From the IMG/VR virus record IMGVR_UViG_3300005821_000007, positions 1 through 30,939 of that record: DNA of 30,939 bases. One strand, 5' to 3'. Position 1 is the first letter of the stretch; every line of letters begins with the position of its first letter. The position numbers and the translations under genes were made by a program. The notes beneath the pieces are model-generated. The model was not told the origin of the DNA, made no database searches, and was given only the letters and a program-made list of their open reading frames with translations. Below, one piece after another: positions 11,248 to 29,861 of the stretch. The stretch comes from a virus.

Positions 11248-13638
11248 ATGAGTGATCCCTTCCTATATCTTGAGGACCTTATAAAGGCCGGAACCGATGG
11301 ACCCCTAATTGCTGGTAAAGGCACTAAGGGTTCTGTCGCTGGGCCTAAGACTTCTGCTCCCAAGGATGGGCCGCTAACCCTTCCTAAGGGTCCAGGTGCC
11401 TCGGCAAAGCCTGCGGGTCCAACCAAGATGAAGACCCCAACACCTCCTGGTGGTTGGGATGTTTATCGTGGCTCTGGCGTTCCTCCTGCCGACGCTGGGT
11501 ATTCTCTCATTGATGGTAAGTATAAGCGACCTATGGGTTCTGGAGGAAAGGGCAAAGCCGCTCCAGAAGATGATCCTAAGAAGACGAAGGGCGCTGCGGC
11601 AGACCCCGCATCCACTGCTGCTGGCGAAGAGGCTCCTCCACCTAAGAAAGGGAAGGCAGCCGACAAAGAGGCTGTTCAAGCCCAAGAGGCTAGTCAGAAG
11701 CCAGAAAAGAAGTTAGCAACTTCCGGCAAGGAGTCCGGTCCTGTTGGTTCCTCCGCTGCTAAGATTGAAGAGTCAAAGCAAGCAACATCTCTTGGTACAG
11801 ACGATTCTGCTATGCAAGGTCTTGAGGCAGCCGCCCAAGACGTGAGCGGTGGCAAGAAGAAGGCACCCGCCAAGAAGAAGGCAGGAGCCAAGAAGGCAGG
11901 AGCCAAGAAGGCAGGAGCCAAGAAGGCAGGAGCCAAGAAGGCACCCGCTAAGAAGAAGGCACCCGCTAAGAAGGCACCCGCTAAGAAGGCACCCGCTAAG
12001 AAGAAGGCACCCGCTAAGAAGGCTGCTCCTAAAGCTGTTCCGGCCTCTTCCCCAGAACAGAAGCTGTCACGAGACTTGCACAAGAAGCAGTCTAAAGAAC
12101 TAGTAGCTTCCATCAAAGCACACCTCGATTCCGGGTCAGTGGATTCCGCGAAGGAGAAGCAGCTTGAGTCAGTTCTCTCCATTCTGCAAGACAAAGCTGT
12201 TATGAGACACATGCCCTCCTCTGACCAGAAGAAGGCTCTTGCTCTAGCTAAGAAAGTTGCAGGCGAGCACGGAAAACCAATTAAGCAGCCTACAGCTAAA
12301 GACTTCAACCTGGATATAAAAGACGCGGACAAGTTCGCAGATTCCGGGAACTGGGACAAAGCAGAGGCTCATTTGGCTTCCGTTTATGATAAGGCTCAGC
12401 ATATACAAGACCCAGACCAACGAAGAGCGGTTACGCAGAGAGTTGGCGCTAAGGTAAAAGCGATTGACAAGAAGCGTAGGACTCAGGAAAACCAGATTCA
12501 GCGCGGCGAGGACAAAGCAGCCAAGGCTAAACTCAAGGAAGAAGCCGCCGCTGCCAAGCTCGCACCAGTGCCCGTTACCACAGATGAGCAGGCTATCGAG
12601 CGGGATATGCACAAGCAGTCCGCCGCAGAGCTAATCGCCACCATCAACGAGCACCTGGATGCAGGAGCTGATGTGGATGATGCAAAGCGCGACCAGCTTG
12701 CAAGCGTTATAGGGGTTTTGGAAAAGCAAGGCGACATAAAGGATATGCCCTCTAAAGAAGAGAAGCAGGCATTGTCCGTAGCTAAGAAGGCGGCAGGTGA
12801 GTTCTCTAAGCCTTACAAGCCACCAAAGGAAGACCCACAAAAGAAGTCCCCTGAAAAGCCCAAGACCAACTATGCCGCTAAGTTCAACAGCGGAATGGCA
12901 GCGGGCACTCGCATAGGCCATGCAGCGGCAACCACAGCGGGAGCCGGGGGAATAGCCTCCACCACAATAGATTACGCATCTAGCGGTGCTGTAAACGCAG
13001 GACACCACTTATTGAGTGGTGGAAAAGTAGAAGCTCCAGCATCATCAGCCGCAAAGGCTCCAAAAAAGGGAGCAGAAGTCGAGCAGTCATCCATGAAGAC
13101 AGAGAAATCACTTGAACTGTATCTAGACGTAGATATGATAAAAGCAGTACAATCCCCAAACATTGGTACCTCCTCTACTACTGGAAGCCGAGCTAAGATG
13201 AAGCACGAGGCCTCTTACGACAAGCGACCAGCGGGCATCGCTAGCGCAGGCCTAGTAACCAAAGAAGACCCCGACCAAAAGAGGAAGACCTCTGGCGGCG
13301 GTGAAACTGTTTCGGAAGACATTGACGAGAAGCTCAAGTTCAAGAAAGAGGAAGAAGAGGATAAGGATGATAAGGATACAGAGAAGTCTCTAGTGACCGC
13401 TCCTAACCCTACCGATTTCTTGAAGTCTTTGAACAAAGACGTGCGGGAAGAACTAAAGATGTTTCTTCCAAACGACATGGAAACCAACTTCATGGTGGAT
13501 ATTCTAGAGTACGACCCAATTCTTGTCTCCAAGGGACAGCTGTCCATCAAAGGCAGGGATCGTCACCGCTTCAACGAGTGGGCACAAGAGCGCCTACACA
13601 AGTCTATTGCTTCTCTAAATGAGAGGGTATCAAGCTAA
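11248..13638 (+). CDS. large Lys/Ala-rich head-operon protein with duplicated domain
   Basis: A 796-residue protein, mostly disordered by composition. Residues about 202-260 are a histone-H1-like run of KKAPAKK and KKAGAKK units. Two similar ~75-residue helical units follow, one near residue 272 ([20 protein letters not shown]) and one near 452 ([20 protein letters not shown]), each ending in a Pro-rich [10 protein letters not shown] or [10 protein letters not shown]. An alpha-helical Gly/Ala segment follows at about 545-590. The region EKSLELYLD near residue 620 carries a peptide shared with neighbouring proteins. The C-terminus (about 710-796) looks globular. It immediately precedes the portal, with a TAATG overlap. 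DNA binding through the basic run, or an internal head protein, is inference. Confidence 0.8.
11853..12023 (+). repeat. 15-base coding tandem repeats ([10 protein letters not shown])
   Basis: Four identical 15-base units (GCAGGAGCCAAGAAG) at 11881-11940, followed by similar GCACCCGCTAAGAAG units. They encode the histone-H1-like basic run, and the near-identical DNA suggests recent expansion by slippage. Confidence 0.9.
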
Positions 13639-15410
13639 TGTCCGATGACTGGAATGACCTAATCTCCTCTTGGAACAACCAGACCCAGGTTGTGCCCTCT
13701 ATGGTAAGAGAGCACATCGCCAAGTCTCGCTTGAAGCCAGAAGATGCTGCTCGCGGACTGCGCACGCAGATGTTCGACCCTCTTGCAATTCAATACGCAA
13801 TGGGGTTCAAGGACCGTAAGTACTCCCTCACCTATGATGTTCTCAAGCGCATCCCTCATCAGGTTTCCGTAATCTCCGCTATCCTTCAGACGCGCTGCAA
13901 CCAGGTAGCCGCGTTCAGTGTGCCTTACCGTTCCTCAAAGAGCGTAGGGTACACCATCAAGCACAAAGACCCAAGCCACCTCACAACCAAGTCCGAGGTT
14001 GAGTTTATCAAGGACCTGGAGCGTTTCATCTACAACTGTGGATATGACGAGCCTAACCCCTACAATAACAATAAGCGTGATGACTTCGAGAGCTTTCTCA
14101 AGAAGATTGTCCGTGACTCCCTCCAGTATGACCAGACTTGCGTAGAGGTCATTCCTGACCGCCGTGGCGCACCTTACGAGTTCATGGCTGTGGATGCTGC
14201 TACGATTCGTATCGCTGCGGTAGATACACCTTTCGGCCCTAACGACTCCTGGCATGGGCGCTCCCAGAACTTCAGTGGCCGCGTGCTCGCTGAGATGGAC
14301 CAAGACCCTAACAGGCACCCATACCGTCACCTGAAGATGTATGAGGGCAGCAAGTACGACAAGAAGGCTGACTTCGTCCAGATTATCAACGGCCAGATTG
14401 AAACCGTTTACACCCGCGAAGAGATGATCTTCGGTGTGCGTAACCCACGAACTGACATCTACATCCAGGGCTACGGCTATGGAGAGCTTGAGCAGTTGGT
14501 TACAACCATCACCGCTCACCTCTACGCAGAGGAATACAACCGTCGCTTCTTCAGCCAGGGCTCTGCTCCTAAGGGCATCCTGAACTTCAAGGGCGACTCC
14601 ATGACCCCCGACCAGCTAGAAGGGTTCCGCCGTCAGTGGCGTGCGAACCTTGAGGGTGTGGACAACGCCTGGAGAACTCCTATCCTCCAGTCTGAGCAGG
14701 GCGTGGATTGGGTAGACCTCAACCCCACCAACAAGGACATGGAATATGGTTCCTGGTTGGAATACCTCATCAAGATCACTTGTGGTGTGTTCCTTATCGA
14801 CCCAGCCGAGATCAACTTCGATCTCAAGGGCGGCGTCTCGCAGACACCTCTGTTTGAGTCCTCGCAGGAGTGGAAGCTCAAGGCATCTCGTGACCGAGGC
14901 CTCAAGCCCCTTCTTCGCTTCTTGGCCAAGCTCATCAACGAGAACATCATCAGCCAGATTGATGACCGCTACGTATTCGACTTCGCCGGTCTTGAGGAGC
15001 TGACAGAGCAAGAGAAGCACACCCTCCGCACGGAGCAGGTGGCTTCCTACCTCACCCTAAATGAGGTTCGCCGCTCTGATGACCTTCCTGACCTAGAGCA
15101 TGGTGACATGCCAATGAACCCAACCTACCTGCAGGCTATTCAGATGAAGCAGCAGGCAGAGCAGGCAGAGCAGCAGATGGAGCAGCAGAACCAACAAGCA
15201 GAGGCTCAGGCCGCTCAGATGGAGCAGCAAGCCCAAGCTGCCGCTGGCGGCGAAGAAGGAGACCCAGGCCAGGGAGAGCCTGAGGACAACGTTGATGCTC
15301 CTCAGTACAGCGACTCCTTCGGCAAGTCCCTAGTTCTGCCTCAGTCGGATGGCAAGTATCTTGAGATTGCACTGGATGACCTAGACGACTGGAAAGATAG
15401 TGTGAGATGA
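13638..15410 (+). CDS. portal protein
   Basis: A 590-residue protein with the features of tailed-phage portals: an N-terminal region with RIPHQVSVISAILQTRCNQV, a central stem region with YAEEYNRRFFSQGSAPKGIL, and the conserved downstream WRTPILQSEQGVDWVDLNP then EYGSWLEYLIKITCGVFLIDP. The portal forms the dodecameric ring at one head vertex through which DNA enters and leaves. The C-terminal 100 residues contain a Gln/Glu/Ala coiled stretch and the shared GKSLVL peptide with KYLEIALDDLDDW. The length is normal for myovirus-type portals. It overlaps the genes on both sides. Confidence 0.9.
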   Translation: MSDDWNDLISSWNNQTQVVPSMVREHIAKSRLKPEDAARGLRTQMFDPLAIQYAMGFKDRKYSLTYDVLKRIPHQVSVISAILQTRCNQVAAFSVPYRSSKSVGYTIKHKDPSHLTTKSEVEFIKDLERFIYNCGYDEPNPYNNNKRDDFESFLKKIVRDSLQYDQTCVEVIPDRRGAPYEFMAVDAATIRIAAVDTPFGPNDSWHGRSQNFSGRVLAEMDQDPNRHPYRHLKMYEGSKYDKKADFVQIINGQIETVYTREEMIFGVRNPRTDIYIQGYGYGELEQLVTTITAHLYAEEYNRRFFSQGSAPKGILNFKGDSMTPDQLEGFRRQWRANLEGVDNAWRTPILQSEQGVDWVDLNPTNKDMEYGSWLEYLIKITCGVFLIDPAEINFDLKGGVSQTPLFESSQEWKLKASRDRGLKPLLRFLAKLINENIISQIDDRYVFDFAGLEELTEQEKHTLRTEQVASYLTLNEVRRSDDLPDLEHGDMPMNPTYLQAIQMKQQAEQAEQQMEQQNQQAEAQAAQMEQQAQAAAGGEEGDPGQGEPEDNVDAPQYSDSFGKSLVLPQSDGKYLEIALDDLDDWKDSVR

Positions 15411-16655: not shown

Positions 16656-17095
16656 TGGACAAACGTTTATACATTAGAGCAGACTTGCTCAGCAAGAGCA
16701 AAGAACAGACCGGAGAGCACGCAGGAGGCACCTACGTTGCCCGCGTTGTAACCGGTACCGAGAAGGACGGCTCCCCGCAGTATCGTTACTTCCGCTCCCA
16801 AGCTGACTACAATAAGTACCTCAGCCAGCAGAGAGATGCCAAGAAGAAGGGCAAGAATCTCGGCCAGGGCAAGAAGACCAAGACTGGCGCTAAGGGCGAG
16901 AAGGGTCCTTCTCACGATGAGAAGCTCCGCTCTAAGCTAAAGGAGCAGCAGGAAAGCTCCTCCACAAAAACAAACAGTAACCCATCCAAGAAACTAAGTG
17001 AGTCACACAGCAAGAAGAGAAGCTTGTTTAGTGGTGGCTCCAAGAAGGCCCAGAAAAGCCTCACATTGTACCTAGGAGATATTGATGTCGAATAA
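16655..17095 (+). CDS. small basic head-operon protein
   Basis: A 146-residue, very Lys-rich protein. The start MDKRLYIRADLLSKSK and the end QKSLTLYLGDIDVE are both versions of the peptide shared among neighbours. Between them is a compact domain (GGTYVARVVTGTEKDGSPQY, RYFRSQADYNKYL) followed by a long basic disordered run. It could contact DNA or serve as an internal head protein. No family recognised. Coupled to both neighbours by overlaps. Confidence 0.7.
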   Translation: MDKRLYIRADLLSKSKEQTGEHAGGTYVARVVTGTEKDGSPQYRYFRSQADYNKYLSQQRDAKKKGKNLGQGKKTKTGAKGEKGPSHDEKLRSKLKEQQESSSTKTNSNPSKKLSESHSKKRSLFSGGSKKAQKSLTLYLGDIDVE

Positions 17096-17603
17096 CCTTC
17101 CCCGAAGACCAGTTCGTTTCGTTGAACAAAACGAAGAGCTGTTGAAGTCCCAAGAGGGCATCGCAGGTCAGAGACAGGGCGCGACTGACTTCAGTGAAGA
17201 TCAGCCAGTGGCTCAGATCTCTCGCCCAACTGCCCAGTATCGCACCCCAATCGACCGCGTTAGCGGCAACGAGTTCTTCCGCCGATACCTTTCTGGCGAA
17301 CTCGACATGGGATACGCAGTCAGCAAAGTTGTTGATGCTCTTCACCGCGCCAAAGATGGTGGCGGAGTAGACCAGCTAAACAACGAGGAAAAGACTTGCC
17401 TAAGCATTCTCTTCCCTCAGCAGTTTCATGGTATGGAGAACGCCTATGTTTCCGGTACCATCGCTGCAGTACAGCTTAGAATTCAACCAGAAGAGATTAT
17501 GGCAATCCGAGTTGAAGTAGCTAAGCACGTACAGGAAGAGATGAACTACAACGCCGGTCGCGGTGGTGGTTCTGCCGCAGGTCGTCACCAGACTCGTTCG
17601 TAA
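17085..17603 (+). CDS. hypothetical head-operon protein
   Basis: A 172-residue protein. The ATG at 17085 has AGGAGATATTG upstream; a TTG one codon earlier is less likely. The N-terminal 60 residues are polar and probably flexible; residues about 65-155 are helical (GYAVSKVVDALHRAKDGG, EEIMAIRVEVAKHVQEEM). The tail is Gly-rich. The first 11 bases overlap the preceding gene. No family recognised. Confidence 0.7.
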   Translation: MSNNLPRRPVRFVEQNEELLKSQEGIAGQRQGATDFSEDQPVAQISRPTAQYRTPIDRVSGNEFFRRYLSGELDMGYAVSKVVDALHRAKDGGGVDQLNNEEKTCLSILFPQQFHGMENAYVSGTIAAVQLRIQPEEIMAIRVEVAKHVQEEMNYNAGRGGGSAAGRHQTRS

Positions 17604-17604
17604 T

Positions 17605-17811
17605 ATGAAAGTCAAGACAAATCTCTCGGCTGAGGAACTAAACCTCGTCAGCAAAGGGCTGAGTCGTCTTGCAGCTAAACAGCAGGAGGACGGCCAGTTC
17701 GTCCCAAACAACGCAGCGGAGAGAGAGCTGCTAGCCTCAGCTACCGACTCGCTGGAGGAAATGCTGCTTAGTCTGAAATACCAAGTATCTGAAATGTTCA
17801 AAGGGGAGTGA
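17605..17811 (+). CDS. small helical protein, unknown
   Basis: A 68-residue protein predicted to be two helices (SAEELNLVSKGLSRLAAKQQ and LASATDSLEEMLLSLKYQV), like a helical hairpin. One base separates its ATG from the preceding stop. Nothing links it to a family. Confidence 0.6.
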   Translation: MKVKTNLSAEELNLVSKGLSRLAAKQQEDGQFVPNNAAERELLASATDSLEEMLLSLKYQVSEMFKGE

Positions 17812-17821
17812 AAGGCCGTAT

Positions 17822-18517
17822 GTGCGTTACCTTCTAGTTCTCCTACTCGTTCTTTGCAGTTGTAATCACCTCCCCAAACCTGTTATACCAGGGAAGCAGG
17901 TAGGCAACTCTTCGAACTCAACGGTTGCCTTGGTAGCCCCTACTAGCTTCTTTGATAAGGAAGGAGACCAGTGGGCTTTCTGCACGGGCTCCTTTATTAG
18001 CGAATATGAAGTATTGACGGCCAATCATTGCGTAACAGAGATAGGCGATAGAATAAACGTAGCCACCTATAGCGATTACGCGGCTACAGACGGAACCTTC
18101 GAGAAGAGACACTTCACAACGTTCCAAGTAATAAAGATGTATAAGTCAGCGGATCTAGCGCTGCTTAGGATTGTAAAAGAAGAGAGATCACGTTTACCTG
18201 CCCACTCGGTTATTCACGTTGGGCACAGAGCCCCTCACGTAGGGGAGAAGGTCTACATCGTAGGCCACCCAAACTCCGCCCTCTGGTCGTACACAGTTGG
18301 TATCGTATCAAGCGGGATTAGGCTCATTGAGAAGTTCGGAAAGTCAAGCAAGTTCTTTCAGCACCAAACCCCGGTTTTCGAGGGTAACTCAGGTGGACCA
18401 GTAATAACCATGAATGGGGAACTCGTAGGAGTAGTATCTCTTTACACCCCAGGAGTCAGTCAGCTAAACCTCTCAGTCCACTTGGACGAAATTAGAGAGT
18501 TCCTAGGAAGAAAATAA
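17822..18517 (+). CDS. trypsin-like serine protease lipoprotein
   Basis: A 231-residue protease of the chymotrypsin/HtrA fold. The triad is visible: His69 in LTANHCV, Asp111 in SADLALL and Ser190 in GNSGGP. It begins with GTG (AAAGG upstream); the N-terminus MRYLLVLLLVLCSC is a short lipoprotein signal (LVLC-S-C), so the enzyme should be exported and lipidated in the host envelope. There is no PDZ domain. It sits in the middle of the head operon, after a small helical protein and before a KSL-motif protein, an unusual place for a secreted protease. A prohead maturation role is less likely because a separate prohead protease lies at 26668. Confidence 0.88.
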   Translation: MRYLLVLLLVLCSCNHLPKPVIPGKQVGNSSNSTVALVAPTSFFDKEGDQWAFCTGSFISEYEVLTANHCVTEIGDRINVATYSDYAATDGTFEKRHFTTFQVIKMYKSADLALLRIVKEERSRLPAHSVIHVGHRAPHVGEKVYIVGHPNSALWSYTVGIVSSGIRLIEKFGKSSKFFQHQTPVFEGNSGGPVITMNGELVGVVSLYTPGVSQLNLSVHLDEIREFLGRK

Positions 18518-18518
18518 C

Positions 18519-19016
18519 ATGTCAGAATACAAAGATTCGCCCAAGCCATTGCGACAAAGTGACCCTAACCCCCTTTTCAAAGAGGCGGATGATGGTTATG
18601 TTATCAAAGGTAGGACAGCGATTGAGCGACAAAGAGATGCCGATGGAACTGGCTATTCTTCCCGCCGCCCAAGCTCTGTTGAACCTAAGGACTACAGCCT
18701 TTACGTTGAGGCGGACAAAGTCAGCAAGTCTAAGTCCCTCTCCACTAAAGAAGAGATTGACCCAGACGAGGTAATCAAGTCGTACATGACCAAAGCCTCG
18801 TTGCCCCCAAACCCAGCTTTGGACAAGGGCTGCGATGAAGACGACGAAGATACCGAAAAAGCTGTGGTTTCCGTAGACGGGAAGAAGCCAAGCAGCCTGG
18901 ATGTCATCACCAGCACCCCTAAAAAACCCAAAGCTTCCACGGATCGCAACCGCACGGGGGGTCCAAACAACACTCCTCGATTTGGCATGGCCAACCTTAC
19001 TACACCTAAGAAGTAA
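18519..19016 (+). CDS. head-operon protein with shared KSL peptides
   Basis: A 165-residue, charged and probably disordered protein, with KDYSLYVEADKVSKSKSLST and DTEKAVVSVDG variants of the shared peptide and a Cys-Asp-Glu run (CDEDDEDTE). It begins one base after the protease stop and ends 13 bases before the MuF gene. No family recognised; by position and composition it may be an internal head component. Confidence 0.65.
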   Translation: MSEYKDSPKPLRQSDPNPLFKEADDGYVIKGRTAIERQRDADGTGYSSRRPSSVEPKDYSLYVEADKVSKSKSLSTKEEIDPDEVIKSYMTKASLPPNPALDKGCDEDDEDTEKAVVSVDGKKPSSLDVITSTPKKPKASTDRNRTGGPNNTPRFGMANLTTPKK

Positions 19017-19029
19017 AATAAGATAAACG

Positions 19030-21924
19030 ATGGACAATCGGTTAGCGTCATTACGCAGGATTCTGCGTATACACATCAATTGGCTGACCGTAAAGTTGCT
19101 CGGTAAAGAGCTAGTCTCAAAAGAGGAGCTAGCTGAACTGAAGGACTACGGAAGGCTTGACCTGGGGGACGAGGTAGGACTTATAGAAAGTTCCTTCGTT
19201 CTTGGCCGTACCAGTGCGCTCTCCAAGAAATCCGAATATAAAGACATCACCCTAGAGAAGCTCTCGATGCTCAAGAAGAGAAAGTTCTCTTCCATCGAGA
19301 AGCTCGCAATTAGAGAAGCAAAGCTCCACGCCTCGCGCCGTCTTCAGATTCTGTCAGAAGAGGCTGCCGCTGGAGCTTTCGCGCGTGTGAACAAGGCCAC
19401 CCAGGACCTCATCGCTGATGCCACCGCAAAGGACATCATCCAAGAGGAACTAGCCCTGGCCTTAGCTGAGAAGAAGACCCGCAAGCAGTTGGCCACCTCC
19501 GTAGGCAACAAGCTCGGCGCTGACCTCACAGCGGGGTTCCGCAAGCTACTCGTCACAGAGATGCACAGAGCCAAGACTCGTGGCGTTGCTATGGCGATTT
19601 CCAACAAGGTGGACATCTACTCCACCTCTGAGGGTGCGCAGTCTATCGTTAGCGTAGTTCCCAACAGGGGAGCATGCAAGGACTGCGAAAACCTGTATCT
19701 CTCAGAGACAGGCGATCCCAGAACATTCAAACTATCGGACCTTGTAGGACAGGGTACCAACGCCGACCCCGGCATTAGCCATGCCCGCACGCATGGGCTA
19801 CACCTAGGCTGGCGTCCAGTTATGCCCCCGGCACACCCTAACTGCTTCTGCGAGCTGGTGTACGTCCCCGCAGGCATGGGCTGGAAGAACGGCAAGCTGG
19901 TAGTTGTAGACGAGCTAAAGTACAAGGAGCAAATCAGCAAGGCTGTTGACAAAAGCACCATGTCCGCTACGATCAAGCCTCATGGCGCACCAAGCAACCA
20001 GGGCGATAAGACACCCAAGCCTGGTAGTTTGCCAAAACTAGGAGGAGACGCTCCTGCTCTAGATGTATCCGCACACGCATCCACCCCAGAACCCACACAA
20101 CAACAGCAAGAACCTGCTGGAGACTCTAGGGAATATGATTACTGGGCACCAAAGTCAGGAGTCCCTCCTACAGGAGAGGGCTGGGAACAAGCAGAGGATA
20201 GCCAAGCATGGAGGCGTCCTAAGGGCTGGGCCGATGTAGGCGAAGGCGAGGACGAAGGCAACGAACGACCAACTATGTCCCCGGAAGAGAACATCGTTGC
20301 GAGACAGAAAGTAAAGGACTACAGCCACAAAGAGCACTCAGTTGCCGAAGCCAAAGATCACATCCAGAACGGAGAAGTAATCAACTCTGTTTCTATGAAA
20401 AAGATGGAGGAGTCAGGCGAGGGCTTGGCAGGCATAAATGATACGTTCAAACAGGACATAGCCGGAAACGGATCAAAGCTTACGAAGCCAGGTAACGCAG
20501 CGTTCGGCTCTGATATTCAAAGAGAAGCTTCTGCGTATTCGGGCTTTGTTCTGGGCGGATGTGGCGACAGATGCTCACCCACCTTTATCTCAACTAAGGA
20601 CAAGCAACCATCCAGTGGTATGGCTTGGCTGGGTGACTACCGCAATGCCATGACAGCCATCGACAGTATTTACCACCGTCCCGAAGGTCCTTCGAAACGA
20701 AGTGATGCCGAAAACCTAGTTCAAGGCCTACTAGATATGGCTCCAGACAAGGACGCAGCTGTTGAACAGATGTCCAGGATAACAATCATGGACATGGTTC
20801 ACAACAACACTGATAGGCACGTTGAGAACCTTATGGTTAATGAGGACTTCTCGGACATACAAGCTATTGACCACGGCTATTGTTTTGAGCCAGGACTTCA
20901 GTCATATAAAAGCAAAATACATCAGGGGTTCAATGCCACCGGCAGGCACTTGAAGATACCCGCCAGTGTGCGGGAGCGCCTTGAGAAGACCTCCTATGGT
21001 GACATGAGGCAGGCCCACGGCGATCACCTCCAGGAGTGGCAAATAGCTCAGACCTATATGCGCATGCAGTATGTTATGCACATCGCTGACGAGAATGATG
21101 GCAACTTGCCCTATGACGCTTTCCAAGGCGATTACACAAAGGATCGCCTAATAGGCAATGCTCGCTTCGAAGACTTTATGGTAGACTGGATTGATACCCA
21201 CTCCGCAGATCCAGACAGCCCACACCACGCCGCAGCAAAGCGCTTCGACCAAGTAGGAGTGTTCGTAGATCCTGCCAACGTCAGAGCCGAACCATATGTT
21301 ATGATGACAAGGCTGGGCGTAGGAGAGAACTATACTTACGAGCAAGAGGTAAGGTCAGAGAAGGCCGCCGCCGAGGCTTATAGAAACCCAGGTGCCCCGT
21401 GGGTCTTGGCTGCTAAAAACAAACAAGATGACATGATAGAGGCCATCAACGCTCCTCAACTAAAAGAGGCTAAAGCTAAGCAGGATGCTGCGATGAGGAT
21501 CTACCAAGACGCTCAGCATGAGATCTTTGAGTTCAAGAGGCTCAATAAAGATCCAAACGATGAATATTGGGCGATGCAGGAAGCAATTCAACCTTTAGCC
21601 AAAAAGTACAAAGAGGCTCGGAAAGAGTTCGTCGATTTGAATACTAAGACCGAAAACCTAAAGACCCGAGAGCGCCGCATGTTCAACATCGTTCCTGAAG
21701 GTTTCCGAGAGAAGTTCGACGAGCTTGAAGAGAAGGTTAACAACGCTAGGGAGGATAGGCGTGTTGGCAGGCGTGGAGCCAGGGCCTATAGAATGGAACA
21801 CGGCACGAGGGTTAAGTCACCAGCGGAGATAGAGAAAGAGAAGCGCCACGGCGCACCTGAAGGCTTTAAGGCGTGGCAGAGTGAGGGCAATAACGCTGAT
21901 GGTGCGACCACGGAAAGGGACTAA
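19030..21924 (+). CDS. MuF-type head protein fused to PI3/4-kinase/HipA-like domain
   Basis: A 964-residue fusion. Residues about 100-285 form the MuF/SPP1 gp7-like minor head domain: LLVTEMHRAKTRGVAMA, Cys216 and Cys219 in ACKDCENLYL, TFKLSDLVGQGTN, and PPAHPNCFCEL (266-276). A linker with SGVPPTGEGW follows. The second half has a kinase-like core: a probable ATP-binding Lys in GSKLTKPGN, then IMDMVHNNTDRHVENLMV with Asp595, His597 and Asn600, and QAIDHGYCF with Asp614. This matches the catalytic and metal-binding loops of PI3/4-kinase and HipA-like enzymes. A coiled-coil tail fills the last 200 residues. MuF proteins are packaged and may be ejected with DNA, so the kinase may act in the host; that last step is inference. 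Confidence 0.85.
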   Translation: MDNRLASLRRILRIHINWLTVKLLGKELVSKEELAELKDYGRLDLGDEVGLIESSFVLGRTSALSKKSEYKDITLEKLSMLKKRKFSSIEKLAIREAKLHASRRLQILSEEAAAGAFARVNKATQDLIADATAKDIIQEELALALAEKKTRKQLATSVGNKLGADLTAGFRKLLVTEMHRAKTRGVAMAISNKVDIYSTSEGAQSIVSVVPNRGACKDCENLYLSETGDPRTFKLSDLVGQGTNADPGISHARTHGLHLGWRPVMPPAHPNCFCELVYVPAGMGWKNGKLVVVDELKYKEQISKAVDKSTMSATIKPHGAPSNQGDKTPKPGSLPKLGGDAPALDVSAHASTPEPTQQQQEPAGDSREYDYWAPKSGVPPTGEGWEQAEDSQAWRRPKGWADVGEGEDEGNERPTMSPEENIVARQKVKDYSHKEHSVAEAKDHIQNGEVINSVSMKKMEESGEGLAGINDTFKQDIAGNGSKLTKPGNAAFGSDIQREASAYSGFVLGGCGDRCSPTFISTKDKQPSSGMAWLGDYRNAMTAIDSIYHRPEGPSKRSDAENLVQGLLDMAPDKDAAVEQMSRITIMDMVHNNTDRHVENLMVNEDFSDIQAIDHGYCFEPGLQSYKSKIHQGFNATGRHLKIPASVRERLEKTSYGDMRQAHGDHLQEWQIAQTYMRMQYVMHIADENDGNLPYDAFQGDYTKDRLIGNARFEDFMVDWIDTHSADPDSPHHAAAKRFDQVGVFVDPANVRAEPYVMMTRLGVGENYTYEQEVRSEKAAAEAYRNPGAPWVLAAKNKQDDMIEAINAPQLKEAKAKQDAAMRIYQDAQHEIFEFKRLNKDPNDEYWAMQEAIQPLAKKYKEARKEFVDLNTKTENLKTRERRMFNIVPEGFREKFDELEEKVNNAREDRRVGRRGARAYRMEHGTRVKSPAEIEKEKRHGAPEGFKAWQSEGNNADGATTERD

Positions 21925-21927
21925 TAA

Positions 21928-22161
21928 ATGGCTGAAGAAGAGACAAAAGAGAACGAGATTGAGTTCATTGCTTACGGCAAGAATGAGGAAGTCGTGGGAA
22001 CCGTTTGGTGGAATGGCAAGAAAGTGGACTCAGATTCACACATATTGCTTGGAAGATTACGAGACCTTGAAGTTAAGGGTCTTACAATAGATGATGGGGT
22101 AGAGTTCTTGAATGAACTCCCCGGTAGATTCAGAAGCTACCTGACAGCAAGGAAACTATAA
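21928..22161 (+). CDS. small acidic protein, unknown
   Basis: A 77-residue protein. The first half forms probable beta strands (IEFIAYGKNEEVVGTVWWNG), the second a helix (DDGVEFLNELPGRFRSYL). Start three bases after the MuF stop. The TAATG overlap couples it to the next gene. No family recognised. Confidence 0.65.
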   Translation: MAEEETKENEIEFIAYGKNEEVVGTVWWNGKKVDSDSHILLGRLRDLEVKGLTIDDGVEFLNELPGRFRSYLTARKL

Positions 22162-22640
22162 TGCTACGTAAATGTATATATGGAGGAGGAGATGGCTGCT
22201 CACGCCAGGGCGGGGATGGTTCTCTCCAGCATGGTAATACTTTTGTCCATCGCTACCCTACTATTGAAGAAGCAGGGAGGCCTGTGGGCTCCTTCGTAAA
22301 GTCTGCAAACCCAGCGGATGAAACCCCTCAATCTATCGCAGATTTCACTATTGCCTTTGATGAGGATAACACTTCTGCTATTATGTCATTAGTTCTGTCA
22401 AAGAGCATTGATGTAGAAGAACTCATCAAGTCGCTCTATGACTTCGACCTGGAGACTGAGGAAGGCATCGAGAAGTTGCTTGAGCTTCTTCCAATCATGG
22501 ATCCAGATATCGTTGTTGAGATGGTAGAGAAGATTTGGCCTGGGTATACTGTAGATCAAGCAGACCCCGACCTCCTAAGAGCCGAGATTAAAGGCTATCT
22601 CTTAGACTATCTAGGAGAGGATGAAGATGCATCTATTTGA
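22161..22640 (+). CDS. hypothetical head-operon protein
   Basis: A 159-residue protein. The N-terminal segment contains a Cys/Gly-rich stretch (CIYGGGDGCSRQGGDGSL), then a VLSKSIDVEELIKSLYDFD helix carrying the shared KS-type peptide, and an acidic helical tail. Function unknown. It shares 14 bases with the following PAS gene. Confidence 0.6.
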   Translation: MLRKCIYGGGDGCSRQGGDGSLQHGNTFVHRYPTIEEAGRPVGSFVKSANPADETPQSIADFTIAFDEDNTSAIMSLVLSKSIDVEELIKSLYDFDLETEEGIEKLLELLPIMDPDIVVEMVEKIWPGYTVDQADPDLLRAEIKGYLLDYLGEDEDASI

Positions 22641-23133
22641 GATTACACTCACATGCTCTGCTGCAGGAGCCATAGTAGCCTGGCTCTGGTCACTCCACAA
22701 GGTAAAGATGATGGAACACAATCTGGATAGCGCTACTTGTCTTGTTAGGAAGAGGACAGTGGCCCTCCACAACCTGGAGAAGTTGATTGAGAACAGCCTT
22801 ACCGCGTTCTCCCAACTAGAAGTATTCGCAGAAAAGACAATAGACGGGATGGTGGTAGTGAAGGATATAGATGAGGAAGATTCCCACTTCGTTTATGCCA
22901 ACCCGGCTATGAGTGAAACATTAGGCTACACACAGGATGAGCTTATAAGCCGTCCGTGGAGAGATTTCTTGGTAACCACATCGAAGGATCAAGCCGACAA
23001 GCTAGACCAGCAATGCTGCGGGGTTCTAGCTGAGTACCGATGTAAGAGTGGAGAGAAGAAGCTACTTTCTGTTTCGTCCTGCCCTGCTGATGAAGAGGGC
23101 TATGTATATGCTGTTTTTAGAGAGATAAAGTAA
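22627..23133 (+). CDS. membrane-anchored PAS-domain protein
   Basis: A 168-residue protein (ATG at 22627 is preferred because AGGAGAGG ends six bases upstream; an ATG at 22621 gives two more residues). An N-terminal membrane helix (SAAGAIVAWLWSL) is followed by a helical linker with coiled-coil character. A PAS domain at about residues 65-168 shows DGMVVVKDID, FVYANPAMSETLGYTQDELI, RPWRDFLVT, AEYRCKSGEKK and a closing YVYAVFREI strand. PAS domains sense ligands, redox state or light, or form dimers. There is no kinase or other output domain, so it would signal by protein contact, for example with the following membrane and helix-turn-helix-like proteins. Confidence 0.85.
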   Translation: MHLFEITLTCSAAGAIVAWLWSLHKVKMMEHNLDSATCLVRKRTVALHNLEKLIENSLTAFSQLEVFAEKTIDGMVVVKDIDEEDSHFVYANPAMSETLGYTQDELISRPWRDFLVTTSKDQADKLDQQCCGVLAEYRCKSGEKKLLSVSSCPADEEGYVYAVFREIK

Positions 23134-23357
23134 TGGCCAACAAAGCAGACCTTACAGGAGGAAATGGTTGGCAAGAGTATCAGCGTTTGGTCCTTTACGA
23201 ATTGAAAGCCCACACCGACACCCTAGCGGAGTTTGGTGCAGAGCTTACGACCGTTAAGGTTGAGATCGGTATGCTCAAAGTTAAGGCAGGCCTATGGGGT
23301 TTGCTAGGCGGTTTGATCCCTGTGGCTATCGCTGTTGTTTCTAAGATGGTAGAATGA
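23133..23357 (+). CDS. XhlA-like coiled-coil membrane protein
   Basis: A 74-residue protein: a coiled-coil-like helix (residues 10-48, YQRLVLYELKAHTDTLAEFG) followed by a C-terminal membrane helix GLWGLLGGLIPVAIAVV. This layout, with the WGxxGGxxP turn entering the membrane, is like haemolysin XhlA-type phage proteins that accompany holins. It is coupled by TAATG to the PAS gene. A holin or holin-partner role is only a possibility; no endolysin is in view. Confidence 0.7.
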   Translation: MANKADLTGGNGWQEYQRLVLYELKAHTDTLAEFGAELTTVKVEIGMLKVKAGLWGLLGGLIPVAIAVVSKMVE

Positions 23358-23575
23358 GTCTAAACGAACGACAATTCAATACTATGGATTTACTGGTTCT
23401 AAAGAACCTACAGCAGCTTGGTCCCAAAACCAAACTACAGCTCATGCAAAAAGGCGTACATTCGGCAATGGTCAATCGCCTCGAAGAATTAGGTGTTCTC
23501 ACCAAAGAACACGACCCAGCAACAAACCTAAACTACTACACGGTGAATAATGACTGTTTCGACACGGGGACATAA
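23354..23575 (+). CDS. small winged-helix-like protein
   Basis: A 73-residue protein with the helix arrangement of a minimal winged helix-turn-helix: TMDLLVLKNLQQLG, TKLQLMQKGV, SAMVNRLEELGVLTKE, then a wing-like TNLNYYTVN. It overlaps both neighbours. It may regulate transcription or be a small structural protein; the DNA-binding call rests on pattern only. Confidence 0.5.
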   Translation: MSLNERQFNTMDLLVLKNLQQLGPKTKLQLMQKGVHSAMVNRLEELGVLTKEHDPATNLNYYTVNNDCFDTGT

Positions 23576-25094
23576 AGGACACGCGCATCGCTGGACTCTT
23601 AGACAGGGTCCTCAGATCGTTTCGTCCGTAACAGAAGGTGCAGACCACCGGCACGAGGTAAGAGGCAACCTATCTGGTCCTCCTATCACTGTTGGTGATA
23701 AGCATATTCACGAGTTGATGATGGATCACATACTTGTGCAATCGGGACCTCCTGTTGAGCAGTCAGAGGCTAAGAAAGATATGGATGACTACGGAACAGG
23801 CCTAGGCACTCCTAGGGACCTAAGCAAGGGCATGATGCCTGACATGGTGGATCCAGATCACTCCTACGTGTTCAAGTCTGGTGAGTTTGGTCTATACGAT
23901 TACTGGTACATTGACAACTTCCACAACTACTGGAAGTACTCTAACGCGCCGGAAGGCACCCCAGACTACGACCCAACTCTTGGCATTCCGCTAATGGCTA
24001 AGGACCAGCCCATGCCAGCAGAGAACCCTCAGTTCTTTACCGCAGATGGCCAAAAGCGCAGCCAGGCAGTTCCCCCAGACATGATGCCTGAAGAGAACCC
24101 AGACTACAACTCCCTAGACCCCAGAAACATTTGGTATGAGATGTACGAGCGCGACGTTGATCGACGCTACATCTACCTGGACTCTGACGTTCGAGAGAAC
24201 TTAGACCTGTGGGTTCAGTACCAGCTTCGCGTCACAGACGCCAATATTCCAAAGCTTCGTAACTTCGCGAGAGAAAAGTTCACATCCGAACACCCCAAGG
24301 ACAAAGTCATAGGGGCCATGCTTCTGCTTATGGATCAGGGCCTTTATGAGCTTGAGGAGCTGGCGGAAGCCACAGTCTCCGACCTGTCTTTCATCGACAA
24401 GACTGTGAAGCTACTAGGACGCAAGTTCCTTTGTGACCCAGACCTGCTTGACTTCTTGACAAGCCTGCAAGGCCCTAGAGACCCTGCAGCTCCTCTGTTT
24501 AGCATTATCTCTATGCAGGGAGAAGGAAAGCTTGGCGTAAAGCATCTAGCTTCCATCTTCAAATACCTCAGGGTATCTCCAGCCTACCTCCTCTCCTGGC
24601 ACGCCAGCCACATCTACTCGCGCATCATCAACCGCCTAGCCTTTGAGGACTTCGATCCTGATGAAGTAGACGGAGAAACTCTTAGTGAGTTGAAGAGAGT
24701 GTTTGGGACCCAGAAGGATTTGCAGTATCTGGTAGACCCCAAGCTCAGAGACTTACTGCTTGAAAACTACGGCACTACCGTCCAGAAGAGTATTGTGCCG
24801 AGAATCGACGCAGACGACTATACTGCTCTCACCGTGTTCTCCGACCTTGTAGGTCGCCGGGACGATGAGATTGAGTTCTCCACCTGGCTCCACGCCCAGC
24901 CTATGCACGACATATCTCCAGAGGAGCAGGCAGAGGTTGACGCCGCTGTAGCAGCCTCTAATGAAGAAGCCGCCGCAGAAGAAGAAGGCGAAGACAGCTC
25001 CGGTACGGATGCAGACGGCAACATAGTGGAATCAGAAAACGCCGACCAGGAAGCTGGGGCAGTTGACACTGACCAAGAAAAGGTGGCAGAGTAA
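23550..25094 (+). CDS. topoisomerase IB-like protein, probably catalytically altered
   Basis: A 514-residue protein. The N-terminal 60 residues have three His-x-His elements (GHAHRW, DHRHEV, KHIHEL) like a YmaF-type metal motif. Residues about 205-410 read like the core of eukaryote-type topoisomerase I: RYIYLDSD, KDKVIGAMLLLMDQ, LLGRKF, PLFSI and SPAYLLSWHASHIY, then FGTQKDLQYLVDPKL, reminiscent of the active-Tyr segment (GTxK..YLDP). The arginines expected in the motifs equivalent to LALRAGNE and FRTYNAS are absent (here LYELEEL and YLLSWHAS). The protein may therefore bind DNA but not cleave it. An acidic tail ends the protein. It overlaps the previous gene by 26 bases. Confidence 0.55.
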   Translation: MTVSTRGHKGHAHRWTLRQGPQIVSSVTEGADHRHEVRGNLSGPPITVGDKHIHELMMDHILVQSGPPVEQSEAKKDMDDYGTGLGTPRDLSKGMMPDMVDPDHSYVFKSGEFGLYDYWYIDNFHNYWKYSNAPEGTPDYDPTLGIPLMAKDQPMPAENPQFFTADGQKRSQAVPPDMMPEENPDYNSLDPRNIWYEMYERDVDRRYIYLDSDVRENLDLWVQYQLRVTDANIPKLRNFAREKFTSEHPKDKVIGAMLLLMDQGLYELEELAEATVSDLSFIDKTVKLLGRKFLCDPDLLDFLTSLQGPRDPAAPLFSIISMQGEGKLGVKHLASIFKYLRVSPAYLLSWHASHIYSRIINRLAFEDFDPDEVDGETLSELKRVFGTQKDLQYLVDPKLRDLLLENYGTTVQKSIVPRIDADDYTALTVFSDLVGRRDDEIEFSTWLHAQPMHDISPEEQAEVDAAVAASNEEAAAEEEGEDSSGTDADGNIVESENADQEAGAVDTDQEKVAE

Positions 25095-26667: not shown

Positions 26668-27414
26668 ATGCAACATGGCTGGACTGACGAAGACACATTC
26701 ACATTCTTCATGCCCGCGACCGCTCTTGAAGTAAAGAAGTCTGGAAAAGGCAAAGACACCAAGCGTTGGATTCAGGGAATCGCTTCCACTGACTCCCGCG
26801 ACTTACAGGGTGAAATTGTCAAGCAACACGGCATTGACTTCTCATACTTCCTGAAGCACGGGTACTTCAACGATGATCACAAGACCGGACCTGAACACAA
26901 GGTCGGGCAACCTACTGAATGCAAAATCACCAAGAACGGTATGTGGGTGAAGGGTTTTCTCTTCAATAGCCACAAGAAGGCAGACGAGTACTGGGAGCTA
27001 ATGCACGCTCTCAACGAGTCTGGTTCCACCCGTCAGGTTGGTTTCTCTATTCAGGGCAAGGTAAAGAGGCGTGCGGGCAAAGAGATTGCCGAATGTTGGA
27101 TTCAAGACATCGCACTAACCCCCGCACCAGTAAATACAACTACGTGGGCAGAGATTGCAAAATCCTTGTCTGCAGATAAATGGGCACTAACTAAATCTGA
27201 CGTTGCTGATGAAGCAGAAGAGGATGAAGAGAAGGCATTAACCGCAGGCGGTGGATCACCGCTTGTACCAGAGAGTCTTGAAGGTGGCGTCAAAAAGGAT
27301 CGCACTAGCAAGGCATTAACCTACGACGAGACTGTAGATCACCTCCAGAAGTCCGAAGGACTAACAGAGGAAGCTGCAGTGGCTGTCGCAAATGTAGTGT
27401 TTGAGCTTTTTTAA
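26668..27414 (+). CDS. prohead protease
   Basis: A 248-residue protein with the layout of phage prohead proteases of the HK97/U35-S78 fold: RWIQGIASTDSRDLQGEIV at the start, DDHKTGPEHKVGQPTE (His71 or His77 a catalytic candidate), then STRQVGFSIQGKV with Ser127, and IQDIALTPAPVNTTTWAEIAKSL, which closes the protease domain. The acidic Lys/Glu-rich C-terminus may be removed during maturation. It is followed by scaffold-like and major capsid genes, the usual order. The start has no strong Shine-Dalgarno (AAGGTAATACTCAAT). Confidence 0.88.
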   Translation: MQHGWTDEDTFTFFMPATALEVKKSGKGKDTKRWIQGIASTDSRDLQGEIVKQHGIDFSYFLKHGYFNDDHKTGPEHKVGQPTECKITKNGMWVKGFLFNSHKKADEYWELMHALNESGSTRQVGFSIQGKVKRRAGKEIAECWIQDIALTPAPVNTTTWAEIAKSLSADKWALTKSDVADEAEEDEEKALTAGGGSPLVPESLEGGVKKDRTSKALTYDETVDHLQKSEGLTEEAAVAVANVVFELF

Positions 27415-27425
27415 GGAGCAATCAA

Positions 27426-28382
27426 ATGAGTGAAAAAACTGTAGCAGAAGAGAGTGTCTCAAAGGCACTTGAAACGCTCCAGGATCTCGCAAAGGGCCAC
27501 AGCTCACGCGGCACCGCAACGACTGATGTAGAGTCGATGCGAGATGCTGGCGCAGGCGCTGGTTCCGATGGTGGATCAACTCAGGTATTCCATACGCCAA
27601 CCAACTCTGACCCAGGAACATGGGCCGGAACAGGACAGCGTACGTCACCTGAGGATGGAGCAACAGACGGTATTGACGAGAACGGAACGGACTATTCCGG
27701 TTCCGCAGAAATGGTCAAGTCCGTACTAGCCAAGGCAGCAGCAGGGGAAACCCTTGATGCAGTAGAGAAGGCCGTTCTTTCCGCAGTAATCGAGAAGGGT
27801 ATGTTCGACAACTTCTCCGGTACTGGCAAGAAGAGCGTCTCTAAGGCAGCTGACTGTGATGACAAGGACGACGACAAGGATGACGACAAGGACGACAAAA
27901 AGAATCCTTTCGCCAAGAGCCTTCTTGAGAACGAAGACGTTTCCAAGGGTCTTGAGGTTTCGTCCTTCCTAGCTGGCTGGGCCAACGTAAACAGCGATGC
28001 ACTTTCGGGTGTTGAGGCTCGTCTTACGAAGTCCCTCGAAGGCGCACACGCGGAGCAAAACGGATACAATGCAGAGCTTGCGAAGTCAATCGTAGGTCTT
28101 GCAGAGGTTCTTACCCTCCAGTCTCAGCGCATCGAGCAGCTTGAGAGCACGCCAGCGCGCGCTCCTAAGTCCGCAACGGCCGTTGAGAAGAGCTTTGGCG
28201 CAGGCGGAGCAGCAGCACCTGAGGGTGAGCAGCTTTCGAAGAGCCAGGTTCTAGGCACCATGACTGAAATGGTTCAGTCGGGAGATCTCAGTGCAACTGA
28301 GGTCGTTAAGTTTGAGTCCACAAATGTCCTCGCATCGGACTTGGACGCTAAAATCCGCGCATACCGTACCGGTAGTCGCTAA
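27426..28382 (+). CDS. scaffold-like capsid assembly protein
   Basis: A 318-residue, acidic, flexible protein between protease and capsid genes, where scaffolding proteins lie. It has Ala/Lys helices, an Asp-rich run (DDKDDDKDDDKDDKK, about 145-160), and repeated AKS/SKA peptides. The C-terminal 40 residues (SKSQVLGTMTEMVQSGDLSA, then TEVVKFESTN) look like a helical shell-binding domain. AAGGAG precedes the ATG. Alternatively it could be an internal head protein. Cleavage by the prohead protease is likely but not visible. Confidence 0.75.
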   Translation: MSEKTVAEESVSKALETLQDLAKGHSSRGTATTDVESMRDAGAGAGSDGGSTQVFHTPTNSDPGTWAGTGQRTSPEDGATDGIDENGTDYSGSAEMVKSVLAKAAAGETLDAVEKAVLSAVIEKGMFDNFSGTGKKSVSKAADCDDKDDDKDDDKDDKKNPFAKSLLENEDVSKGLEVSSFLAGWANVNSDALSGVEARLTKSLEGAHAEQNGYNAELAKSIVGLAEVLTLQSQRIEQLESTPARAPKSATAVEKSFGAGGAAAPEGEQLSKSQVLGTMTEMVQSGDLSATEVVKFESTNVLASDLDAKIRAYRTGSR

Positions 28383-28406
28383 TAGAATCTATTAGGAGAA
28401 TATAAA

Positions 28407-29861
28407 ATGACTATTGGTCTTTCGTCCTTTCAGAACTCAACGTCAGGTATGTCTGGTTTCGGTGCAGGAACCGATCAGGATATCGCTGAGCTGAGCAAAG
28501 CACTTGAAGCTGGTTACCAGACCGGCGCAGGTAAAACAGGTGGTTCCGCACTTCGTGTCGAGTCCCTTGAAGCATCACTTAAGGTGCTTACCTACACCTC
28601 CTCCCATATTAAACTATGGAAGAAGATCCCCAAGAGCCCAGCTTACTCGACCGTTGAGGAATACAACCAACTAATTAACTACGGTGGAAACCAGAATCCT
28701 TTCGTTCAGGAAGGTGAGCTTCCACAGGCTACCGACACTTCGTACGCACGTCGTGTTCAGCTTGTTAAGTTCCTTGGTACCACCCGCGAGGTCACGCATC
28801 AGGCGTCCCTTGTCCATCCAGCTCATGGCGACTTGATCGCTCTTGAGAACCAGTCGGGCATCCTTTGGTTGCTTGAGCAAGTTGAACGTAACTTGTTCGC
28901 TGGTGACTCCTCTCTCTCCTTCGATGGTGAAGCAGAGCAGTGGGATGGCCTTGACTCCTTGATTGATGCATCGTCCGTTCTCGACTTGGAAGGTAACTCC
29001 ATCCAGGAAGCAGACATGGAAGAGGCAGCAAACGAGATCATCGAGAACTACGGTTTCCCAACCGACATGTTCCTCGGTACTCGCACGATGTCCGACCTTG
29101 TAAAGACGTTCTACCCTCGTGAGCGCGTCTCCCTACCTGCACCACAAAATGGTCAGGTTGGTCAGTCCATCCAGACAATCAGCACCCAGGCTGGCGTAAT
29201 CGAGTTCAACCCTGACGTATTCATTCGTCAGACCTCGACCCCACCTGCAGCTGCAACGTCTCCAAATGCTCCAGCGGCTCCAGCGATCATCGCTGCGATT
29301 ACGCCAACTGGCACATCTGGTGACCACAACAAGGGTGCCCCAACCGGTACCTCCAACGTGAACTACGTCGCAACGGCTTGTAACCGTTTCGGTGAGTCCG
29401 CTCCTTCCCCAGTTCAGGCTGCGGTTGAGGCACAGACTCAGGTTAACAAGGACGCCGGAACTTACCTTCCTGTCTCTGTTGATAACGCACCTTCTGTTGG
29501 TGCCTTCCCAGCTGAATACCTTCGCATCTACCGCTCGTCTGCAACTCTTGCAGCTGGCGTTCCTACGGATCTTTCGGCTTACGCCCTTGTCGCTCAGGTT
29601 CCAGTTGCCTCCCAGGCAGCCTCAGGTACCACAGTCTGGAACGATGAAAACCTTACCCTACCATTCACGTCTACGGCGTACTTGGGTGAGCTTACACCAT
29701 CGGTTCTTACATTCCGTCAGCTCATGCCTATGATGAAGATGGACCTTGCAGTTCTCTCCCCAGCTTACCGTTGGATGATTCTTCTGTACGGTACTCCAAT
29801 CCTCTTCGCTCCTAAGAAGTGGATTCGCATGATCAACATCGGTCGTCTCGAAGTTCGTTAA
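28407..29861 (+). CDS. major capsid protein with FN3/Ig-like insertion
   Basis: A 484-residue HK97-fold capsid protein. The N-terminal arm (GLSSFQNSTSGMSGFGAG) is followed by core segments such as SSHIKLWKKIPKSPAYST, FVQEGELPQATD and LEQVERNLFAGD, a spine-like helix at DMEEAANEIIENYG, and a C-terminal strand set (MMKMDLAVLSPAYRWMILLYG). Between about residues 280 and 425 a Pro/Ala linker introduces an FN3/Ig-like domain (YVATACNRFGESAPS, YLRIYRSS), which probably projects from the capsid. AGGAGA is upstream. Codon use is very even, as in highly expressed phage genes. Confidence 0.9.
   Translation: MTIGLSSFQNSTSGMSGFGAGTDQDIAELSKALEAGYQTGAGKTGGSALRVESLEASLKVLTYTSSHIKLWKKIPKSPAYSTVEEYNQLINYGGNQNPFVQEGELPQATDTSYARRVQLVKFLGTTREVTHQASLVHPAHGDLIALENQSGILWLLEQVERNLFAGDSSLSFDGEAEQWDGLDSLIDASSVLDLEGNSIQEADMEEAANEIIENYGFPTDMFLGTRTMSDLVKTFYPRERVSLPAPQNGQVGQSIQTISTQAGVIEFNPDVFIRQTSTPPAAATSPNAPAAPAIIAAITPTGTSGDHNKGAPTGTSNVNYVATACNRFGESAPSPVQAAVEAQTQVNKDAGTYLPVSVDNAPSVGAFPAEYLRIYRSSATLAAGVPTDLSAYALVAQVPVASQAASGTTVWNDENLTLPFTSTAYLGELTPSVLTFRQLMPMMKMDLAVLSPAYRWMILLYGTPILFAPKKWIRMINIGRLEVR

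What the first reader, a model, noticed from the sequence alone, without database searches (positions are those of the whole stretch)
19030..21924. MuF head protein carrying a kinase-like effector domain
The N-terminal MuF domain fits a packaged minor head protein; residues about 480-660 hold NNTDRHVENL and AIDHGYCF, a close match to PI3/4-kinase and HipA-like catalytic loops, with a candidate ATP-binding Lys upstream. MuF proteins with C-terminal toxin or enzyme domains are known; a lipid/protein-kinase-like domain in this place would make a virion-delivered kinase. It could act on host EF-Tu, tRNA synthetases or others at ejection.
Basis: partly seen in the sequence, partly recalled or inferred. 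Interest (0 to 1): 0.8.

Follow-up and report, generated by a model that had tools for sequence, protein, structure and literature searches.

The report
Phage head protein fused to kinase
A tailed phage related to Bacillus phage SPO1 makes a head protein whose second half is an intact-looking kinase enzyme; related phages swap that kinase, with a small neighbour gene, as a cassette, which suggests an enzyme carried in the virus particle and released into the bacterium at infection.

Summary
Confirmed and extended. ORF 19030-21924 (964 aa) joins a remote MuF-type minor head domain (residues 1-294) to an apparently intact PI3/4-kinase/HipA-like kinase (about 441-690). Pfam PF00454 is above its curated cut-off (9.7e-8); K486, E499, D595, H597, N600 and D614 are invariant in 11 homologues; AlphaFold plus Foldseek give PI3K/PI4K/CtkA folds. 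The gene lies between portal and prohead protease/scaffold/major capsid protein.

Not in the finding: (1) nine other contigs encode the same fusion. (2) The kinase half is replaced by recombination: L020 and L021 have identical MuF domains (dS 0.02) but 57%-identical kinases (dS 1.0); L019 and L023 are 95% versus 26%. (3) A 77-91 aa gene directly downstream changes with the kinase type; in a viral-contig scan it followed a MuF-kinase gene in all 11 hits. (4) Two unrelated phages have canonical Phage_Mu_F + PI3/4K fusions, one followed by a weak homologue of that small gene; other relatives encode MuF and kinase as adjacent genes.

Best reading: a virion-packaged, host-entering kinase effector of MuF polymorphic-toxin design, probably with a cognate inhibitor/partner. 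Packaging, activity and target are untested. New variant of a known kind.

The parts
19030..21924 (+). MuF-kinase fusion gene, 964 aa
   Evidence: ORF; homologues with the same architecture on nine other contigs, L002 and L018-L025
19030..19911 (+). MuF-type minor head domain, residues 1-294
   Evidence: Homologues in Spounavirinae; sub-threshold PF04233 in relatives; hhalign 87%; AF2 pTM 0.73 and Foldseek head-morphogenesis matches
19912..20349 (+). Variable linker, residues 295-440, in which the identity drop between relatives begins
   Evidence: Regional identities and sliding DNA identity
20350..21099 (+). PI3/4K/HipA-like kinase domain, about residues 441-690
   Evidence: PF00454 9.7e-8; AF2 pTM 0.83; Foldseek
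20485..20487 (+). K486, predicted ATP-binding lysine
   Evidence: invariant in 11 homologues, in a predicted strand
20524..20526 (+). E499, predicted salt-bridge partner of K486 in the helix that follows
   Evidence: invariant in 11 homologues
20812..20829 (+). Catalytic loop D595-R596-H597-x-x-N600
   Evidence: invariant D595, R596, H597, N600; PF00454 match
20869..20871 (+). D614, predicted metal-binding aspartate (DFG-like position)
   Evidence: invariant in 11 homologues
21100..21921 (+). C-terminal extension and charged tail, residues 691-964; the tail is the least conserved part
   Evidence: regional identities, dN/dS about 0.5 in the tail
21928..22161 (+). 77-aa downstream gene that co-varies with the kinase type; candidate cognate partner or inhibitor
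   Evidence: within-type 62-80% versus 36-42% between types; profile scan finds it only behind MuF-kinase genes; translationally coupled
13638..15410 (+). Portal protein (context)
   Evidence: PF04860 2e-23, SPO1 gp3.1-like
26668..29861 (+). Prohead protease, scaffold and major capsid genes (context)
   Evidence: PHROGs 1028, 15087, 752

Best explanation
The gene encodes a MuF-type minor head protein. Its N-terminal domain docks it inside the procapsid, probably at the portal as for SPP1 gp7. Its C-terminal half is an active PI3/4K/HipA-like kinase that is packaged with the DNA and enters the host at infection, where it phosphorylates a host component. The kinase arm is an exchangeable cassette: relatives keep the head domain and swap the kinase together with the small gene behind it. 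That gene most likely encodes a cognate partner that binds the kinase and keeps it inactive in the producing cell. Shown here: fold (predicted), catalytic residues, head-module position, purifying selection, recombinational exchange, co-variation of the small gene. Inferred: packaging, ejection, host target, inhibition by the partner. My estimates: kinase fold with intact active site 0.95; MuF-type head protein 0.9; packaged and delivered 0.65; protein rather than lipid or small-molecule substrate 0.7; small gene is an inhibitor/immunity protein rather than a chaperone, other partner or hitch-hiker 0.4.
For: Pfam PF00454 above cut-off and matched by 11/11 homologues; invariant K486/E499/D595/H597/N600/D614; AF2 pTM 0.83; Foldseek PI3K/PI4K/H. 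pylori CtkA, E 4e-6 to 3e-5, prob 1.00. MuF. Head module: portal, protease, scaffold, MCP. Independent MuF + PI3/4K fusions with both domains over Pfam cut-offs: L107, L160. Adjacent MuF and kinase genes in L078-L081 and L090. Cassette exchange: L020/L021 dS 0.024 in MuF, 1.00 in kinase; L019/L023 dS 0.29 versus about 3.2, identity profile. Purifying selection on the kinase, dN/dS 0.2-0.36 in pairs where it could be estimated. Small gene. Delivery precedents: PMC6316719, PMC5576092, PMC5512222.
Against: No virion proteomics. The window's own N-terminal domain scores no PF04233 hit. In SPO1-like phages the MuF gene stands alone, so the head role does not need the kinase. In L078-L081 the kinase is a separate protein, whose packaging would need another route; in L078 and L080 it is followed directly by the prohead protease with no small gene, so the partner is not universal. 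Jamet et al. 2017 found MuF toxins only in temperate phages; this phage resembles the SPO1 lineage and no integrase was found in the available fragments (fragments only).
Confidence: 0.65

Rival explanations
1. The kinase acts during assembly: a head-bound kinase that phosphorylates phage proteins (scaffold, capsid, itself) as a packaging or maturation switch, with no role in the host.
For: The gene lies in the head module between portal and protease/scaffold/MCP, so it is probably expressed late; kinases are also adjacent but unfused in L078-L081.
Against: The kinase is swapped for divergent versions while MuF and a neighbouring gene stay 93-100% identical; an internal assembly enzyme should co-evolve with its phage substrates. 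Stand-alone MuF homologues exist without it.
Confidence: 0.15
2. A late-expressed kinase acting in the infected producer cell (for example superinfection immunity or envelope change, as proposed for the HipA-like kinase of Gratiaviridae), tethered to heads but not delivered.
For: HipA-like kinase between portal and MCP genes in Gratiaviridae, for which a late immunity role was proposed (PMC8008677).
Against: Fusion to a MuF domain in the window and, independently, in L107 and L160 would place it inside heads, which is pointless for an action in the cytoplasm of the producer.
Confidence: 0.12
3. The C-terminal half is a degenerate or non-catalytic kinase fold used as a structural or binding module.
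For: The region is among the most divergent of the protein; Foldseek TM-scores are modest (0.3-0.46).
Against: All catalytic positions are invariant across domains only 20-50% identical and dN/dS is 0.2-0.36.
Confidence: 0.06

Closest known systems
MuF polymorphic toxins (Jamet et al. 2017, PMC5576092; Zhang et al. 2012, PMC3482391)
   Same: MuF head domain N-terminal, variable enzymatic domain C-terminal, cassette-like exchange, small downstream gene
   Different: The main text of PMC5576092 names nuclease, metallopeptidase, ADP-ribosyltransferase and RelA-type domains and does not contain the word kinase; those toxins were found only in temperate phages, this phage resembles the SPO1 lineage
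SPP1 gp7 (PMC6316719)
   Same: MuF-type minor head protein, portal-proximal gene
   Different: gp7 has no effector domain described; sequence relation to the window domain is remote
HipA-like kinase of Gratiaviridae phages (PMC8008677)
   Same: HipA/PI3K-type kinase gene between portal and MCP
   Different: described as a separate protein beside an ATPase and a glycosyltransferase; interpreted as superinfection immunity, not virion delivery
HipA/HipT toxin kinases and their HipB/HipS antitoxins (PMC9325769, PMC8262856)
   Same: PI3/4K-like kinase fold; small partner gene; HipT(Lp) is the best PDB profile match (E 0.07)
   Different: HipA_C profile not over cut-off; the small gene shows no match to any PDB chain, HipS chains being among those deposited, and no Pfam family; the gene order is toxin then partner
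Polyvalent-protein kinases (Iyer et al. 2017, PMC5512222) and zeta-toxin MuF fusions
   Same: kinases in phage proteins proposed to be injected; MuF fused to the zeta-toxin small-molecule kinase
   Different: those protein kinases are a separate STYK group that lost the C-terminal subdomain; here the C-lobe is present and the family is PI3/4K/HipA-like

Membership tests
PI3/4K-like kinase superfamily (PF00454) | Profile score over curated cut-off | tested here: met
   32.6 bits against 27.1; 11/11 homologues match at E <= 0.1
PI3/4K-like kinase superfamily (PF00454) | Catalytic Lys, Glu, DxHxxN loop and metal-binding Asp | tested here: met
   K486, E499, D595, H597, N600, D614 invariant
PI3/4K-like kinase superfamily (PF00454) | Two-lobed kinase fold | tested here: met
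   AF2 pTM 0.83 and Foldseek PI3K/PI4K/CtkA; a prediction, not a solved structure
PI3/4K-like kinase superfamily (PF00454) | Phosphotransfer activity | not testable with these tools
   needs an assay
HipA toxin kinases (PF07804) | HipA_C profile over cut-off | tested here: not met
   13.2 bits against 30.5
HipA toxin kinases (PF07804) | HipB-type (HTH) or HipS antitoxin neighbour | tested here: not met
   no such Pfam or PDB match for the small neighbour gene
MuF minor head proteins (PF04233) | Profile score over cut-off | tested here: not met
   no hit for the window; relatives only below cut-off; the independent fusions L107 and L160 meet it
MuF minor head proteins (PF04233) | Homology to MuF core (helical bundle, TE..A, CxxC...HPxCxC) | tested here: met
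   hhalign 87%, E 4e-6; motif conservation; fold matches
MuF minor head proteins (PF04233) | Gene in portal/head module | tested here: met
   between portal and protease/MCP
MuF minor head proteins (PF04233) | Present in virions | not testable with these tools
   needs proteomics
MuF polymorphic toxins | Conserved N-terminal trafficking domain with recombining C-terminal domain | tested here: met
MuF polymorphic toxins | Cognate immunity gene downstream | tested here: inconclusive
   co-varying 77-91 aa gene, function unknown
MuF polymorphic toxins | Toxicity to bacteria | not testable with these tools
   needs an expression test
MuF polymorphic toxins | Carried by temperate phages | tested here: inconclusive
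   no integrase in the fragments; portal SPO1-like
Polyvalent-protein kinases (Iyer 2017) | Loss of the kinase C-terminal subdomain | tested here: not met
   several confident C-lobe helices after the catalytic loop

The most novel reading that the evidence does not exclude
A new class of virion-delivered PI3/4K-like kinase effectors: capsid-borne kinase cassettes, each with a dedicated small inhibitor gene, exchanged between related phages on a fixed MuF head domain, used by SPO1-like phages to modify the host (or rival phages) in the first moments of infection.
Probability: 0.35. Interest if true: 0.8.

Novelty: new variant of a known kind. Interest (0 to 1): 0.62.

Why it matters
Enzymes delivered inside phage heads are known (T4 Alt, MuF toxins), but a PI3/4K/HipA-like kinase as the payload, exchanged by recombination as a two-gene cassette in SPO1-like phages, was not found in the papers searched. 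If true, it extends MuF effectors beyond the temperate phages in which they were reported, gives a set of natural kinase/partner pairs for testing specificity, and points to host proteins whose phosphorylation helps a phage at entry. The same kinase family recurs with MuF, NUDIX, ADP-ribosyltransferase and GNAT domains in many uncharacterised phages.

Tried and rejected
Direct relatives in bacterial genomes: none for the window kinase. tblastn of the kinase region against named phages: only weak hits; Edwardsiella phage ZHS (H30) is an opposite-strand chance match. Staphylococcus phage tail-protein hits at E >= 1 are noise. The Rad50-like PDB match falls on the charged tail, E 0.06, rejected. 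Small gene: no Pfam, PHROG or PDB family and no relative in named phages. L160 also has a 79-aa ORF after its fusion, but it does not match the partner profile, so it is not counted. A repeated LYL/LIKS peptide motif in neighbouring head-module proteins was considered as a capsid-targeting tag, but the MuF-kinase lacks it. 'Fast evolution' of the kinase half was rejected because synonymous divergence jumps too.

Full report
What is there. The ORF at 19030-21924 is intact and encodes 964 residues. The window is covered by a 61-kb virus contig (IMGVR_UViG_3300007871_000033) at 99-100% DNA identity. Its portal resembles SPO1 gp3.1, about 40% identical. The prohead protease, scaffold and major capsid genes follow at 26.7-29.9 kb, so the ORF sits inside the head module, between portal and protease.

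Kinase half. PF00454 matches residues 578-626 with E 9.7e-8, above the curated cut-off; NCBIfam's SCO1664 family matches the same place below its cut-off. A scan with the N-terminal domain gave other contigs carrying the same fusion. In the resulting alignment of 11 kinase domains, some only 20-28% identical to the window's, K486, E499, D588, D595, R596, H597, N600 and D614 never change. The AlphaFold model (pLDDT 78.5, pTM 0.83) puts K486 in a strand, E499 in the following helix, D595-N600 in a loop after a long helix and D614 directly after a strand, which is kinase topology. Foldseek finds PI3K p110, PI4KII and H. pylori CtkA at E 4e-6 to 3e-5, probability 1.00, with modest TM-scores, as expected for a remote relative with inserts and extensions. 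By sequence profile the best PDB matches are HipT/HipA_C proteins, E 0.07. It therefore belongs to the PI3/4K-like superfamily and resembles HipA kinases, but fails the HipA_C cut-off.

MuF half. Residues 5-285 match stand-alone 286-aa proteins of Lysinibacillus and Bacillus Spounavirinae phages, E down to 8e-24, encoded near portal genes. PF04233 itself does not hit the window, but matches close relatives nearly end to end below its cut-off (L024 E 3.4e-4, L023 1.9e-3, L019 2.9e-3). Profile-profile comparison of 60 relatives with six canonical MuF proteins gives 87%, E 4e-6, over the TE..RA region. The modelled domain finds phage head-morphogenesis and minor-capsid proteins. This is remote MuF homology, not a formal PF04233 hit.

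Independent cases. L107 (609 aa) and L160 (639 aa) are MuF-kinase fusions with both Pfam domains over cut-off. In L078-L081 and L090 the MuF gene is followed by a separate kinase gene. A Mycobacterium abscessus prophage protein joins a VG15 minor capsid domain, a kinase-like middle (weak evidence, by similarity to the Mx1 kinase) and an ADP-ribosyltransferase. BFVD matches include phage proteins named head morphogenesis or portal that contain the kinase fold, so the combination is in databases although I found no paper describing it.

Cassette exchange. L020 and L021 are identical in the MuF domain (dS 0.024) and 99% in the gene after the small ORF, yet their kinases are 57% identical (dS 1.00) and tails 43%. 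L019 and L023 are 95% in MuF (dS 0.29), 26% in kinase (dS about 3.2) and 93% in the gene after the small ORF. Sliding DNA identity places the junctions in the linker and around the small downstream ORF. Because synonymous divergence jumps with protein divergence, this is replacement by recombination, not fast protein evolution. Two kinase types result: type I (window, L002, L019, L022, L024, L025) and type II (L018, L020, L021, L023). Within pairs where it can be estimated, the kinase evolves under purifying selection (dN/dS 0.2-0.36).

The small gene. The 77-aa ORF 21928-22161 begins 3 bases after the fusion's stop codon; in relatives the two genes abut or overlap. Its orthologues are 62-80% identical within a kinase type (one pair is identical) and 36-42% between types, while flanking genes show no such split. 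A scan of viral contigs with its profile found 11 loci, all directly behind a MuF-kinase gene; in L186 the contig begins inside that gene. The L107 fusion is followed, at the same place, by a 77-aa ORF that matches the profile, E 6e-4 among 12,099 ORFs. This suggests a cognate partner, perhaps an inhibitor, but hitch-hiking is not excluded, and L078-type loci lack it.

Mechanism. By analogy with SPP1 gp7, which the portal targets to the procapsid interior in few copies and which supports initiation of infection (PMC6316719), and with MuF toxins proposed to be delivered to the host (PMC5576092), the most likely mechanism is packaging by the MuF domain, entry with the DNA and phosphorylation of a host component, with the small protein restraining the kinase in the producing cell. 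Packaging, entry, activity, substrate and restraint are all inferences. Assembly-switch and non-delivered late-kinase models remain possible.

Novelty. MuF-effector fusions, a phage-encoded HipA-like kinase in a head module (PMC8008677) and proposed injected kinases of another group (PMC5512222) are known. A PI3/4K-like kinase as an exchangeable MuF payload with a co-varying partner in SPO1-like phages is a new variant. Limits: the relatives with the same fusion are all metagenomic fragments, the host is unknown, the literature search covers only openly licensed papers, and there are no experimental data.

Noticed in passing
window 15407-15913: Stand-alone InPase-like domain (PF18823, 1.2e-34) right after the portal gene; the same domain is fused inside MuF-like proteins of relatives L039, L042 and L087.
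   Followed up: partly
window 17822-18517: Trypsin-like serine protease (PF13365 1.2e-18) with an N-terminal lipoprotein-like signal (LLVLCSC), encoded inside the head module shortly before the MuF-kinase gene; conserved in relatives.
   Followed up: no
window 11248-26493: A short peptide motif like LYLxxDLIKS/LYLRKS recurs in several otherwise unrelated head-module proteins (11248, 15407, 16655, 18519, 26251; LIKS alone in 15951 and 22161) and in none of the 14 earlier genes; it could be a capsid-targeting or protease tag. No significance test was made.
   Followed up: partly
window 11248-13638: 796-aa protein before the portal with a long lysine/alanine repeat (AKKAPAKK), histone-H1-like.
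   Followed up: no
window 22621-23133: 170-aa protein with an N-terminal hydrophobic segment and a PAS-like sequence (FVYANPAMSETLGYTQDELI) in the head module; no PHROG function.
   Followed up: no
L106, L108, L109, L166 (also Mx1, L013): Phages with a NUDIX-containing protein bearing a C-terminal PI3/4K-like kinase, followed directly by a second kinase gene; L170 adds an ADP-ribosyltransferase and L179 an Acb1-like and a GNAT domain.
   Followed up: partly
L087:4989-9320 and 9807-10787: MuF-like protein carrying an intein/Hint insertion, InPase and a poly(A)-polymerase head domain; a kinase-like ORF (SNHDSHAGNF) lies 0.5 kb downstream.
   Followed up: partly
L022:5766-5768: An in-frame TGA splits the MuF domain of this relative; sequencing error, degeneration or recoding not resolved.
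   Followed up: no
window 9406-9909: Phage peptide deformylase (PHROG 2890, 8.6e-32), near a dehydrogenase-like gene at 7391-8419.
   Followed up: no
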